This document shows, in pieces, positions 3,082-7,363 of a stretch of 7,363 nt of DNA. The notes under the pieces were generated by a model. That model was not told where the DNA came from, searched no databases, and worked only from the letters and a program-made list of their open reading frames with translations. Numbering within the stretch: the first letter of the stretch is position 1; each line of letters opens with the position of its first letter. Where the stretch lies: positions 1-7,363 of the forward strand of contig JAICSD010000227.1 in assembly GCA_025937075.1 (NCBI GenBank), written 5' to 3'. The position numbers and the translations under genes are program-made. Source of the DNA: Vicinamibacteria bacterium (GTDB lineage Bacteria > Acidobacteriota > Vicinamibacteria > Vicinamibacterales > 2-12-FULL-66-21).

Positions 3082-5214
3082 ATGTTCTGCAATTACTGCG
3101 GCGCTCCCAATCCGGACGACGCGGCGTTCTGCCGTGGATGCGGGCGCGAGCGCGCCCACCCCGGGGCTGCACCGACGGCGCCGCGCGTGGTGTCCGTCCC
3201 GCCTCAGCCAGAACCAGAGGCGCCGCCGCCCGCGGACCTGCCGCCGCCGGAGGGCCAGGCGGCTCCGTCCGCTGCAGCCCCAGACGCTGTCCCGTCTCAG
3301 CCCCCGAGCGGCCTGAGCCTCTTCTTCATCGCGGTCGCGGGCCTGATGATCATCACGGCGCTGGGCTACGCCCTCGCGAATGTGGTGGAAGGGCGGCGTG
3401 AGGCTGCGCAGCGGGACGCTGATTCGGCCCGGGCCCTCGATACCTCTCTCCAGAATGCCGCCACGTCCTTTCACGTGGCGGGCACAACGCAGCCGGTTGC
3501 CCCGACGGGATCCCAACCCGCAGTGACATCGACGGCGATCGGCCCGATCGACAACCTGCAGGCGCTGGCCTCGCTCGCGTTCCCGCCGGATGGTGACGAT
3601 GCGAACGCGCTGGCGTGCGACCGTCTCGCCGATCATCCGGACGATCCGCTCAGGGTAGGGGACGGCGTCCAGGTGCCATTGCTCGACATCGCGCAGGCGC
3701 TGCCGGTGTGCGAGCGCGCGGCGGCGATCACGCCCGACAAGCCTCGGTATCACTTCCTGTATGGCCGCGTCCTCGACGCCGCCGGACGTAGTCAGGAGGC
3801 GATTCAGCAGTACACGCTCGCGGAGCGGGCCGGCTACGTGTTGGCGGACCTGAATCTCGGTCTCCTTTACGGGTATGGCGACGGCGTTGCGCAGAATCAG
3901 GATCTCGCGATCGCCTTCCTCCAGCGCGCCCATCTGGGCGGATTGGCAAACGCGCGGGCGTTTATCGGCGATCTGTACGCCCACGCGTCGCCGCCGGACT
4001 ATGCGCAGGCGAAGGCCTTTTACGAACAGGCCGTCGACGTCAGCGCGCCGCAGGGATATGCCGGCCTTGCCGTGCTCTACGACCTTGGCCTCGGCGTCGA
4101 CAAAGATCGGGTCAAAGGCGCCGAGCTCGCCCGGAAAGCCGCCGAACTTGGCAACGTGAACGGCATGTTCTGGCTCGGACGGCACCTGAGAGACGGACAG
4201 GGCGTCGAGCGAAATCCCTCCGCCGCGTGTGGGTGGTTCGACAAGACCGCGCGCGCGAACTACGCATACGGGCAACTCGAAGCGGGCCGGTGCTTCTACA
4301 CCGGCGACGGCGGCATCAGGAACCATGAGTACGCGTTCTACTGGCTCATTCGCGCGGCACAGGCCGGGCTTCCCGAAGCGCAGGAACTCGTCGGTGACAT
4401 GTACGACGACGGCGACGGCGTTGCCGCGGACGAAGCACAGGCCGTCGCGTGGTATCGCAAGGCGGCCGTTCAGGGCGACACCTACGGGATGATGCAGCTC
4501 GGCGTCCACCTCCGGCAAGGCAAGGGTGTCGCCTGGAGCGAAGCGGAGGCGATGCAATGGTTCGAGAAGGCGGCACGGGCAGGATATGCCGCCGCCCAGA
4601 GTTCGCTTGGCGCGGGATATCTGGCCGGCCTCGGTCAGGACGCCGGGCAGGGCCACCAGGACTACCAGCAGGCGGCGTACTGGTTCGGCGAGGCGATCAA
4701 ACAAGGCGAAGGCTTCGCGCTGGTGAACCTGGGCGTCATGTACGAAAACGGGTTGGGCGTGCCCCAGGACCTCGATCGCGCGAAGCAGCTCTACACGCAG
4801 GCGGCACAGAGTTCCAATCCAGCGGCCGCCAAGGCGGGACAGGAATACGCTGCGAACCTCGCCTCACCGCCATCGACGAGCGAGCCGCAACCGGGCTCAC
4901 TCGCGCGCACGAAGCAGTCGCCGTCGAACGCCGATGCCTGGGTCGCGATCGTCGTCGGCGCGGTCGCCGTCGCCGCGGTGACGACGCTGTTCGGCCATTC
5001 GTCGTCGACGTCGTCGGATGCATCCGCGGATTCATCCACGGATACATCCAGCATCGACACGGCGCCGTTCACACCGTTTACGCCATCCATCGACTGGGGG
5101 TCTTCGTCGTCCAGCTCAACGCCTGACCCGGCGCCGCTGCACCCGTACTACCCGTATCAGCAGTGGAAGACGCCGAACGGAGACCTGACCAATCCGAATA
5201 TCGCGTGGCGTTGA
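3082..5214 (+). CDS. Zinc-ribbon, membrane-anchored Sel1-repeat protein
   Basis: A 710-residue membrane protein. Residues 1-21 are a zinc ribbon with ligands C3, C6, C17 and C20. A Pro/Ala-rich linker leads to a transmembrane helix at about 78-100. A conserved-looking segment with C179 and C210 (CDRLADHPDDP, ending near PDKPRYHFLYGR) precedes a solenoid at about 220-595. The solenoid has one TPR-like unit and about nine Sel1-like units of roughly 36 residues with the usual LG..Y..G.GV and AA..G signatures. A second hydrophobic helix (about 617-637) and a Ser/Thr/Asp-rich tail end the protein. If the zinc ribbon is cytoplasmic, the Sel1 solenoid lies in the periplasm and the tail returns inside; this topology is inferred. 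Sel1 repeats are protein-binding scaffolds, so an adaptor role is likely. No strong ribosome site precedes ATG 3082, but the MFC..CG opening matches the downstream paralogue and fixes the start. It lies 18 bases after the YD lipoprotein gene and 9 before the next. Confidence 0.92.
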   Translation: MFCNYCGAPNPDDAAFCRGCGRERAHPGAAPTAPRVVSVPPQPEPEAPPPADLPPPEGQAAPSAAAPDAVPSQPPSGLSLFFIAVAGLMIITALGYALANVVEGRREAAQRDADSARALDTSLQNAATSFHVAGTTQPVAPTGSQPAVTSTAIGPIDNLQALASLAFPPDGDDANALACDRLADHPDDPLRVGDGVQVPLLDIAQALPVCERAAAITPDKPRYHFLYGRVLDAAGRSQEAIQQYTLAERAGYVLADLNLGLLYGYGDGVAQNQDLAIAFLQRAHLGGLANARAFIGDLYAHASPPDYAQAKAFYEQAVDVSAPQGYAGLAVLYDLGLGVDKDRVKGAELARKAAELGNVNGMFWLGRHLRDGQGVERNPSAACGWFDKTARANYAYGQLEAGRCFYTGDGGIRNHEYAFYWLIRAAQAGLPEAQELVGDMYDDGDGVAADEAQAVAWYRKAAVQGDTYGMMQLGVHLRQGKGVAWSEAEAMQWFEKAARAGYAAAQSSLGAGYLAGLGQDAGQGHQDYQQAAYWFGEAIKQGEGFALVNLGVMYENGLGVPQDLDRAKQLYTQAAQSSNPAAAKAGQEYAANLASPPSTSEPQPGSLARTKQSPSNADAWVAIVVGAVAVAAVTTLFGHSSSTSSDASADSSTDTSSIDTAPFTPFTPSIDWGSSSSSSTPDPAPLHPYYPYQQWKTPNGDLTNPNIAWR
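5015..5050 (+). repeat. Three 12-bp tandem repeats with palindromic cores
   Basis: CGGATGCATCCG, CGGATTCATCCA and CGGATACATCCA follow each other without gaps, differing only at two positions. Each has the self-complementary core GGAT-n-CATCC; the first copy (GGATGCATCC) is a perfect palindrome. In frame they add Ser/Asp/Thr/Ala tetrapeptides to the tail of the Sel1 protein, so this is an in-frame coding minisatellite. Confidence 0.7.
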
Positions 5215-5223
5215 GGAAGCCGC

Positions 5224-5820
5224 ATGTTCTGCCAGTATTGCGGGAAGCCGAATCCAGACGACGCGTCCTTCTGCGGCGCGTGCGGGAAGAACATCGCGTG
5301 GGCTCCCGAGCCTGCCGTGCGGCGCGTCCCGCCGACGGTCCAGACTGCGCCGGGGAGCGCCCCTCAACCGATCGCGTCAGAACCCGTTCACACCGTATCG
5401 GCGGCTGAGGAGCGGCTCGTTCGATCGATTCTCGCGCCGGAAGCGAAGAAGGATAGATGGAAGCTGCCCAATTGGCTCGGGGTCGCCGCCGGCATCGCGA
5501 TCATCCTCATGCTGATTCCGCACAAGGACGGAGCATCGGTTTGCGACGCCGCGCACAATGAAGTCGCGCAGCAGGTGCCGTTCGCCGTCGAGATCCTCGC
5601 CGCGCGCCACCCGCTCACCGTCGGCGTCGTTCGCGCGGTCACGAAGGAGAGCGGGTTCGTCGACAAGCTTGCCGGGATTTACGTGCAGAGCGAAATGATC
5701 CCGCAGGAGAATCCCGGGGCCGCGAGCTGCTACATCGCGTATTACACGGTGATGTTCCAGAAGGACCGCGTCCGCGCCTCCATCGCCGATTGGCTGGAAG
5801 CGAAGGCGCAGCTGAAGTAA
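5224..5820 (+). CDS. Zinc-ribbon single-pass membrane protein
   Basis: A 198-residue protein. Residues 1-21 form a zinc ribbon (C3, C6, C17, C20) that matches the N-terminus of the preceding Sel1 protein at 16 of 21 positions. A Pro/Ala/Thr linker with a charged stretch (61-80) leads to a transmembrane helix at about 82-99. A C-terminal domain of about 98 residues follows, with C107 and C169, which could form a disulfide if this part is periplasmic. I do not recognise the C-terminal domain; it looks alpha/beta, without catalytic motifs. GAGGAA at 5213-5218 overlaps the TGA of the upstream gene and stands five bases before the ATG, so translation is probably coupled. The shared N-terminal module and tight spacing suggest that the two proteins meet at the membrane. 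The gene ends four bases from the stop of the convergent adaptor gene, with no clear terminator between them. Confidence 0.9.
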   Translation: MFCQYCGKPNPDDASFCGACGKNIAWAPEPAVRRVPPTVQTAPGSAPQPIASEPVHTVSAAEERLVRSILAPEAKKDRWKLPNWLGVAAGIAIILMLIPHKDGASVCDAAHNEVAQQVPFAVEILAARHPLTVGVVRAVTKESGFVDKLAGIYVQSEMIPQENPGAASCYIAYYTVMFQKDRVRASIADWLEAKAQLK

Positions 5821-5824
5821 CCCG

Positions 5825-6889
5825 TCAGCGGCTCGTCGCGCGGAGTCCAAGGCGCTCGCGCTCGGCGCGCAGCGAGAACGTTCCCTTCGTGACCACGGCG
5901 TCGCCGGCCTTCACACCCTCGATCACCGCCACACGATCCCCTGAGCGTTCGCCCAGTCGCACCTCGCGTTCGGTGAACCTGCCCGGGTGGCTGTGGTCGA
6001 CGAGGTAGACGACGGTCCGATCGCCGACGTTCTGAACGGCGCTGGCAGGCAGCGTCGGCAGGTTCGTATCGCCTGCGTCGTCGATACTCATCTCGGCATA
6101 CATCCCGAGACGCAGCAGCCCGCGAGGATTGGGCACTTCGGCACGCACCCTCGCCGTCCTGGTCTCCGGGCTCACCTGGGGATCGATGTATGTGACGCGC
6201 GTGGGAATCACCAGGCCCGGATAGGCAGTCGTGGTGACGGTCGCTCGAGCGCCGGAGCGCAGGCGCGCGAAATCTTTCTCGTAGACCCCGGCTATCACCC
6301 ACACGCTGGAGAGATCGACGATCGTGAACAGCTTTGCAGTCGTGTCTACGTTCAGGCCTGGATTGGCCGTCCGTGCGGTGACGATGCCCGCCAGCGGCGC
6401 AGGGATCGTCATGAGCGCGGCGACGTGTGTTCCGGGGCCGAGATGGCCGATTTGCGCCGATGACAACCCGAGCAGCTCGAGACGCGACTGCGCGCTCGCG
6501 ACAGCCGTAAGCCGCGCCGTATGCTCCGCGTGGAGCATCTCCACTTCCTGACGCGTGGCGGCTCCGATCTCGACCAGCTTCTCGGTCCGCTGAAGCTGCC
6601 GTTCGTGCGCATCCAGCTCCGCGCGGGCGGAAACGTAGCGTGTCTCGGCTTCGGCGAGGTCCGGGCTGAAGATTTCCGCGAGCGCTTGACCGCGGCGGAC
6701 GGACTCGCCGAGTTGCGCGAGAACGCGCGTCACTCGCCCGGAAGCGAGCGGCGTCACATCGACCTGCTTGTAATCGTTTGGCTCGATAGTCGCGGGCAGC
6801 CGAAGCTGTGCACCCTCGCCGCCTGCGGCGACGGTTGCGACGACAATCCCTGCGCGCTCCATTGCTTCCGGTGTGAGCTCGATGTTCAC
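5825..6889 (-). CDS. RND efflux periplasmic adaptor (CusB/CzcB-like), open part downstream of an in-frame TAG
   Basis: The periplasmic adaptor (membrane fusion protein) that joins an inner-membrane RND pump to a TolC-type channel. The open stretch from GTG 6889 encodes 354 residues. It has the split barrel-sandwich/lipoyl domain (about 43-75 and 160-192), an alpha-hairpin (about 76-145) with heptad-like Ala/Leu/Glu pattern, a beta-barrel (about 194-270) with SSVWVIAGVYEKDFA and LGMYAEMSI, and a membrane-proximal domain (about 275-345). The style is that of heavy-metal-efflux adaptors, but no metal specificity can be proven. The same frame continues upstream for 72 codons to ATG 7105 and contains one TAG at 6959-6961. 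GTG 6889 lacks a ribosome site and would give a protein without export signal, so it is probably not the natural start. I read the locus as a recently disrupted gene or a sequence error. No RND pump gene follows; the next gene is convergent. Confidence 0.85.
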   Translation of the reverse strand: MNIELTPEAMERAGIVVATVAAGGEGAQLRLPATIEPNDYKQVDVTPLASGRVTRVLAQLGESVRRGQALAEIFSPDLAEAETRYVSARAELDAHERQLQRTEKLVEIGAATRQEVEMLHAEHTARLTAVASAQSRLELLGLSSAQIGHLGPGTHVAALMTIPAPLAGIVTARTANPGLNVDTTAKLFTIVDLSSVWVIAGVYEKDFARLRSGARATVTTTAYPGLVIPTRVTYIDPQVSPETRTARVRAEVPNPRGLLRLGMYAEMSIDDAGDTNLPTLPASAVQNVGDRTVVYLVDHSHPGRFTEREVRLGERSGDRVAVIEGVKAGDAVVTKGTFSLRAERERLGLRATSR

Positions 6890-6958
6890 ATCTGCCAGTC
6901 GATTACTTCCGGCCGCCGCGCCGTGGTTCTCGTGCGGTTGGGGTTGCGGAGTGCCTTG

Positions 6959-7105
6959 CTATAGCGCGTGATCGGCGCGGGCCGGCGCCGGCCGCGCGGG
7001 CGATCGCACGATCCAGTACGTGCCCGCCGCGCCAGCCGCCATGCACGCGATCGCGACAATGAGAAACACCGGCCAGCGCAGCGCTACTCGAGACGTCGCG
7101 TTCAT
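6959..7105 (-). pseudogene. N-terminal fragment of the periplasmic adaptor ending at TAG
   Basis: ATG 7105 opens a 48-codon frame ending in TAG (6961-6959). The peptide has a short basic N-terminus (MNATSRVALRW), a hydrophobic segment at about residues 12-33 (a signal anchor or uncleaved signal), and a Pro/Ala/Arg linker. This is exactly the expected N-terminus of an RND adaptor. It is in the same frame as the adaptor body at 5825-6889, and the 23 codons between TAG and GTG 6889 are open and read as a Gln/Pro/His-rich linker (QGTPQPQPHENHG). The start is firmly set by GGGAGAAG upstream and an ATGA overlap with the TolC-family gene. One C-to-T change in a CAG codon would explain the stop. Confidence 0.85.
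6975..6997. repeat. GC-only near-perfect palindrome in the adaptor linker
   Basis: GGCCGGCGCCGGCC (6980-6993) is a perfect 14-base palindrome, and four further base pairs extend it if G6979 is bulged. It lies in the codons for a Pro/Ala/Arg linker, 13 bases 5' of the adaptor's in-frame TAG on the mRNA. Linker codon use alone can explain it. Confidence 0.5.
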
Positions 7106-7363
7106 CGAACTTCTCCCAATGCGGCTTTGAGTGCCTGCCGCGCTTCGTAGGCTTCGCGCAACGCCGCCGTGTACGCGAGCTCCACGTCCAGGTATCGCCG
7201 TTGTTCGTTGAGGACATCGAACAGCGTCACGCGGCCGAGGTCGTAGGTCTGCCTCACGACGGCGAGATTTTCACGAGCGAGGCCCCGCGCATCGGAGGTG
7301 TATGCGGCGAGCGCCGCCCGCGCGTGTTCATCGCGGCTCCGTGAAGCCGCGATTTCGCTCTGC
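7102..7363 (-). CDS. TolC-family outer-membrane efflux protein, C-terminal part
   Basis: The last 86 codons of an outer-membrane efflux channel (OEP/TolC family); the 5' part is beyond the right edge. The reading frame ends in TGA at 7104-7102 and shows the family's C-terminal helical repeat: ENLAVVRQTYDLGRVTLF, then DVLNEQRRYLDVELAY and a final long helix. The YDLG-to-FDVLNEQRRYLD stretch is the typical equatorial and second-hairpin region. The trimeric channel spans the outer membrane and periplasm and docks on the periplasmic adaptor encoded next. The stop overlaps the adaptor ATG (ATGA), which indicates one operon with coupled translation. The order channel-then-adaptor matches heavy-metal RND operons, where the pump gene usually comes third; here it does not. 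Confidence 0.9.
   Translation of the reverse strand, partial: QSEIAASRSRDEHARAALAAYTSDARGLARENLAVVRQTYDLGRVTLFDVLNEQRRYLDVELAYTAALREAYEARQALKAALGEVR
7110..7117 (-). promoter_or_regulatory. Ribosome binding site fixing the adaptor start
   Basis: GGGAGAAG on the minus strand ends four bases before ATG 7105, with the GGAG core seven bases away. It lies inside the end of the TolC-family gene. It makes ATG 7105 the natural start of the adaptor, which in turn makes the downstream TAG a true interruption of that gene. Confidence 0.7.

What the first reader, a model, noticed from the sequence alone, without database searches (positions are those of the whole stretch)
5825..7105. Single in-frame TAG splits an otherwise intact efflux adaptor gene
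ATG 7105 has a good ribosome site and an ATGA overlap with the TolC-family gene, encodes the expected membrane segment, and is in the same frame as the full adaptor body. The only interruption in 426 codons is TAG at 6961-6959, within the linker (context CTA TAG CAA, plausibly once CTA CAG CAA). No other stop or frameshift is present, so the lesion is recent, a sequencing or consensus error, or read through. None of the six other complete frames I call ends in TAG (three TAA and three TGA, one of these in the tentative 40-residue ORF), so amber suppression or reassignment cannot be excluded from this window, though the count is small.
Basis: partly seen in the sequence, partly recalled or inferred. 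Interest (0 to 1): 0.7.

Follow-up and report, generated by a model that had tools for sequence, protein, structure and literature searches.

The report
Metal-efflux adaptor gene with premature stop
A gene for one part of a probable bacterial metal-export pump is cut by a single stop codon in a fast-changing spacer, while a close relative carries it whole, so this is most likely an ordinary recent mutation or a sequencing mistake and not a new way of reading the genetic code.

Summary
The frame from ATG 7105 to TGA 5825 has 427 codons, with stops only at codon 49 (TAG 6961-6959) and at the end. Both pieces match one intact relative, P0002 (426 aa), without a gap. All 26 differing codons, the stop included, are one base from the relative's residue. 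The protein is an RND-type periplasmic adaptor, nearest to ZneB among solved structures. In a model of P0002, residue 49 lies in a disordered linker between membrane helix and body.

Recoding has no support: the relative has a sense residue there, no other frame examined has an internal stop, and no TAG among seven gene ends is expected one time in five. Without reads, a real nonsense allele cannot be told from a consensus error.

Side result: of 120 listed homologues, 13 begin just after the linker, and three short database proteins fit a frameshift inside it. This looks like a fragile stretch or a shared artefact; the DNA was not seen. Interest is low.

The parts
6959..7105 (-). N-terminal piece of the adaptor: ATG 7105, 48 codons with the membrane segment, then TAG
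   Evidence: 43 of 48 residues identical to intact P0002
6959..6961 (-). in-frame TAG, codon 49, in the linker
   Evidence: linker disordered at 34-69 in the model of P0002
5825..6958 (-). adaptor body in the same frame, 377 sense codons and TGA
   Evidence: 357 of 374 aligned residues identical to P0002, no gap
5825..6889 (-). open frame from the first ATG/GTG/TTG after the TAG (GTG 6889), 354 aa; carries the HlyD_D23 and RND_mfp matches
7110..7117 (-). GGGAGAAG, likely ribosome site of the adaptor (judged by eye)
7102..7362 (-). 3' end of a TolC-family outer-membrane factor gene, overlapping the adaptor start by ATGA
   Evidence: PF02321, E 2.4e-06

Best explanation
An ordinary nonsense lesion, one base change from the state of the intact relative, in the flexible linker of an RND-type (probably heavy-metal) efflux adaptor. 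Shown: the frame, the lone stop, and an intact colinear relative. Inferred: if the DNA really carries it, translation ends after 48 codons and leaves a membrane stub; any body made from GTG 6889 has no export signal and stays in the cytosol, so this copy makes no working adaptor. The lesion is young, since no other stop or gap is found in the frame. I put a real allele in this population at about 0.55 and a base or consensus error in this contig at about 0.37; the remainder goes to the two other rivals.
For: One stop in 426 codons, and the rest 95% identical to P0002. All 26 differing codons, the stop included, are one base from the relative's residue, so the stop sits in frame among ordinary substitutions. 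Linker residues 36-75 hold 12 of the 26 differences, against 3 in 1-35 and 11 in 76-426, and residue 49 is in the disordered stretch of the model. No other internal stop in the gene frames examined (nine, two of them cut by the window's ends). The RNA after the TAG folds no better than shuffles (z +1.18); no tRNA and no Rfam match at gathering score in the window.
Against: The host genome is not held and no reads are available, so allele and error are not separated. The 48-aa product sits in a database cluster of two member sequences on one listed contig of 7363 bases; the second member could be an independent copy or the same contig twice. The family's recurrent linker breaks could point to something systematic (see the section on the most novel reading). 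Only one close relative was found (next best 68%).
Confidence: 0.92

Rival explanations
1. Consensus or assembly error in this contig; the organism's gene is intact. (One of the two branches of the best explanation, listed apart because reads would decide it.)
For: A lone stop in an otherwise conserved gene. The window has the length of the whole 7363-base contig listed for its own 48-aa product. Three other short database proteins of this family fit a frameshift in the same linker (P0130, P0133, P0135).
Against: The other frames in the window have no internal stop. The codons around the TAG also differ from the relative by single steps, as natural divergence does. Those three breaks are indels, this one is a substitution.
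Confidence: 0.37
2. The TAG is decoded (reassigned codon, suppressor tRNA or programmed read-through) and the full-length adaptor is made.
For: The frame continues open for 377 codons, and no natural gene end in the window uses TAG.
Against: The 96% identical relative has a sense residue at this column. TAG is met once in 2345 codons, where a reassigned codon should recur. No TAG in seven ends is expected by chance 21% of the time. No stable RNA structure follows. A 2021 screen states that all stop reassignments then known in bacteria concern UGA (PMC8629427, passages seen).
Confidence: 0.03
3. The real gene starts at GTG 6889 and the 48-aa frame is not part of it.
For: 13 of the 120 listed homologues are annotated as starting just after the linker.
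Against: P0002 begins at the equivalent of ATG 7105. For each of the 13 short forms a listed protein at 79-95% identity has the longer N-terminus. By eye no ribosome site at proper distance precedes GTG 6889, and a body without export signal could not serve as a periplasmic adaptor (inference).
Confidence: 0.03

Closest known systems
RND periplasmic adaptor / membrane fusion protein (NCBIfam TIGR01730; Pfam HlyD_D23)
   Same: The body scores 185 bits against a cut-off of 94.9, and HlyD_D23 189.6 against 30; the gene follows a TolC-family gene.
   Different: The membrane segment is cut off from the body by TAG.
ZneB / CzcB / CusB heavy-metal efflux adaptors
   Same: Best solved-structure match by sequence is ZneB 3lnn (E 1.2e-37), also first by fold for the relative P0002 (E 1.3e-24, though TM-scores are only 0.32 and 0.39). 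By my count 29 of the 120 listed homologues bear a heavy-metal or cobalt-zinc-cadmium efflux name; others are called only RND family efflux subunit or have no name.
   Different: Below the curated cut-offs of the CzcB (153.5 against 319.3) and CusB (102.7 against 390) models; no RND pump gene was seen in the window.
P0002, intact relative from a JGI metagenome
   Same: Same length, start and end; 400 of 426 residues equal.
   Different: Sense residue at column 49; 25 other substitutions, 11 of them in residues 36-75.

Membership tests
RND periplasmic adaptor (TIGR01730), as a gene family | body scores above the curated cut-off | tested here: met
   185 bits against 94.9
Working (exported) RND adaptor | N-terminal anchor or signal joined to the body | tested here: not met
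   TAG at codon 49 parts them in this copy; joined in P0002
CzcB/NccB family (TIGR00999) | score above the curated cut-off | tested here: not met
   153.5 bits against 319.3
CusB (NF007303) | score above the curated cut-off | tested here: not met
   102.7 bits against 390
TAG reassignment or suppression | TAG at sense positions in several genes | tested here: not met
   once in 2345 codons over eight frames, two of them cut by the window's ends; the window is small
TAG reassignment or suppression | suppressor tRNA(CUA) in the genome | not testable with these tools
   no tRNA in the window; host genome not held
Programmed stop-codon read-through | stop kept in relatives | tested here: not met
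   sense residue in P0002
Programmed stop-codon read-through | stable RNA structure after the stop | tested here: not met
   z +1.18, 182 of 200 shuffles fold at least as well
Nonsense allele / young pseudogene | intact relative, little other decay | tested here: met
   P0002 intact; no other stop or gap in 426 codons
Nonsense allele / young pseudogene | lesion present in the reads | not testable with these tools
   no read data

The most novel reading that the evidence does not exclude
In this adaptor family the linker between membrane helix and body is a recurrent break point. The window (TAG), P0130, P0133 and P0135 (frameshifts), P0123 (a piece that diverges and ends 20 residues further on, by a stop or a contig end), and 13 of 120 listed homologues that begin just after the linker might together mean that metal-efflux adaptors are switched off and on by reversible lesions there, or are made in two pieces.
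Probability: 0.05. Interest if true: 0.5.

Novelty: new member of a known kind. Interest (0 to 1): 0.14.

Why it matters
It matters little by itself: one more single-stop lesion in a metagenome contig, of use as a caution when stop-codon recoding is inferred from single genes. The recurrence of linker breaks would be worth a survey with reads, because low-complexity GC-rich linkers could be either an assembly trap or a real switch of an efflux system.

Tried and rejected
Close relatives with DNA: the one scan of genome contigs gave 10 loci, all at 29% identity or less; a scan of viral contigs gave no relative; the plasmid records gave nothing at 60% identity or more (best row shown 37%). The DNA of P0002 and P0123 could therefore not be compared, and no Ka/Ks was possible.

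A double frameshift around the TAG was considered as the source of the local divergence and set aside: all five differing codons 48-52, the stop included, are single-step changes in frame. A structured read-through signal was not found. Tails of seven short database proteins were tested as linker frameshifts, their start points set by eye and with 12 shuffles each: P0130, P0133 and P0135 exceed all shuffles; P0138 (64 aa, from a 597-kb contig) reaches 11 of 15 where shuffles reach 12; P0141 20 of 32 (shuffles up to 20), P0140 13 of 24 (up to 14) and P0123 6 of 7 (up to 6) do no better than shuffles. P0132 was too short to test.

Limits of the recurrence count: the short-piece searches only admit proteins of 0.55 to 1.75 times the query length, so breaks late in the gene could not be seen; the 120 homologues are the best of 3012 matches; the DNA behind the 13 late starts and the short pieces was not seen, so some may be start-site calls or contig ends.

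Paper searches: one on premature stops in metagenome-assembled genomes found no paper holding all four terms; one search listed two unrelated papers; (pyrrolysine, Acidobacteri, TAG) listed three papers that I did not open; some searches were seen as listings, from which three papers were opened (PMC8277102, PMC8629427: passages; PMC3549826: abstract and one section).

Full report
WHAT IS THERE. On the minus strand, ATG 7105 opens a frame of 427 codons ending in TGA at 5827-5825; codon 49, at 6961-6959, is TAG and is the only other stop. GGGAGAAG stands at 7117-7110 and the start overlaps the stop of a TolC-family gene as ATGA. At the window's base composition (66% G+C) a frame this long with at most one stop has probability about 0.0004. 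The body scores 185 bits against the RND adaptor model (cut-off 94.9) and 189.6 against HlyD_D23, but stays below the curated cut-offs of the CzcB and CusB models. Its best solved relative by sequence is ZneB (E 1.2e-37). It is therefore an RND adaptor gene, most probably of the heavy-metal branch; the substrate is inferred, and no pump gene was seen in the window.

THE INTACT RELATIVE. A protein search with the 354-aa body gave 3012 matches among 7997 scored candidates, of which 120 are listed. The first, P0002 (426 aa, 96% identical, a cluster of 24 member sequences, from JGI metagenome data), is far above the next (718 against 504 bits; 68%). The window's 48-residue piece matches P0002 residues 1-48 (43 of 48), and the 377-residue piece matches to the last residue (357 of 374 aligned), so that 48 + 1 + 377 = 426 with no gap. 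Codon by codon, 26 of 426 columns differ, the stop among them, and all 26 are single-base steps; 3 lie in residues 1-35, 12 in 36-75 and 11 in 76-426. An AlphaFold2 model of P0002 (23 sequences, mean pLDDT 74.8, pTM 0.45, so only local features are used) has a helix at 11-33, pLDDT under 50 at 34-69 and the first strand of the body at 73; ZneB 3lnn is first in the fold search (E 1.3e-24, but TM-scores of 0.32 and 0.39, so the pose is poor). The stop thus falls in the fastest-changing, unstructured linker.

IS THE TAG READ? Nothing found here supports it. The close relative has a sense residue at this column. In the window TAG is met once in the 2345 codons of eight frames, two of them cut by the window's ends. 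The seven natural ends are three TAA and four TGA; with TAG at about 20% of stops in bacteria (PMC3549826, abstract and one section read) none in seven has a chance of 0.21. The 70 bases after the TAG fold worse than most shuffles (182 of 200 at least as well). There is no tRNA and no Rfam match at gathering score in the window. A screen of over 250,000 genomes states that all stop reassignments then known in bacteria are of UGA and that its five new codes concern arginine codons (PMC8629427, passages seen), and that stops in pseudogenes can mimic recoding, the last said of yeasts. The host genome is not held, so a suppressor tRNA elsewhere remains untested.

WHAT FOLLOWS IF THE DNA IS REAL. 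Translation would end after the membrane segment. The first ATG, GTG or TTG after the TAG is GTG 6889; by eye its 20 upstream bases hold no ribosome site at proper distance. A body begun there has no marked hydrophobic stretch (best 19-residue hydropathy 1.05 in about its first 60 residues, against 2.0 in the 48-residue piece). A review notes that AcrA without its lipid anchor still works (PMC8277102, passage seen), but that concerns a different adaptor and protein already in the periplasm; a cytosolic body cannot bridge pump and channel (inference). So a real allele would be a loss of this adaptor, and a young one.

ALLELE OR ERROR. The window has the length of the contig that the database lists for its own 48-aa product. 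That cluster counts two member sequences on one listed contig, which may or may not be an independent copy. Clean frames elsewhere and single-step divergence around the stop lean to a real allele; the breaks in this linker in other database sequences lean the other way. Reads would decide.

A SIDE RESULT: THE LINKER BREAKS OFTEN. Of the 120 listed homologues, 105 have the body motif at residue 92 or later, two (P0008, P0121) at 84 and 79, and 13 begin only 30-55 residues before the motif, that is after the linker and without a membrane segment; for each of the 13 a listed protein with the longer N-terminus exists at 79-95% identity. A search with the window's 48-aa piece found two proteins, the window's own and P0123. 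P0123 (68 aa) equals P0002 to residue 60 but for residues 3 and 8, then differs at 61 and 63-66 and ends at 68; whether by a stop or at a contig end was not seen. A search with an alignment of 20 N-terminal pieces gave 20 short proteins among 7746 candidates. Eleven of them carry the reading past the linker into the body (P0124-P0129, P0131, P0134, P0136, P0137, P0139; P0129, P0131 and P0136 lose the match later, in the body). Three have tails that fit a frameshifted reading of relatives' linkers better than each of 12 shuffles (P0130 18 of 21, P0133 14 of 14, P0135 20 of 25). Of the other six, P0138 is inconclusive, P0132 too short to test, P0140 and P0141 leave the family's sequence earlier (after residues 33 and 25) and fit no frameshift, and P0122 and P0123 are those. 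This fits a low-complexity, GC-rich, indel-tolerant linker that is hard to sequence or mutates often.

VERDICT. This is most likely an ordinary premature stop in a known kind of gene.

Noticed in passing
P0123 (68 aa, JGI contig of 2302 bases): Against P0002, residues 61 and 63-66 are five changes that could each be a coding-strand C-to-T, and so could a stop at column 69, if the piece ends by a stop; a strand-coherent cluster that looks like base damage at a read end, an artefact or a deamination event. Worked out by hand from the proteins; the DNA was not seen.
   Followed up: partly
5820-5825: The adaptor and a zinc-ribbon protein gene (5224-5820, +) converge with four bases between their stops; no RND pump gene lies downstream of the adaptor, so the pump would be upstream of the TolC-family gene or elsewhere.
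   Followed up: no
5825-5900: The adaptor ends without the C-terminal cupredoxin-like domain (PF13473) that many of its listed homologues of about 520 residues carry; P0002 and several others also lack it.
   Followed up: no
3082-5214 and 5224-5820: Two neighbouring genes begin with the same kind of zinc ribbon (PF13240); the first continues with Sel1 repeats.
   Followed up: no
6959-6964: The codon before the TAG is CTA, the only CTA among the 2345 codons of eight frames, so the spot is unusual in codon use as well.
   Followed up: partly
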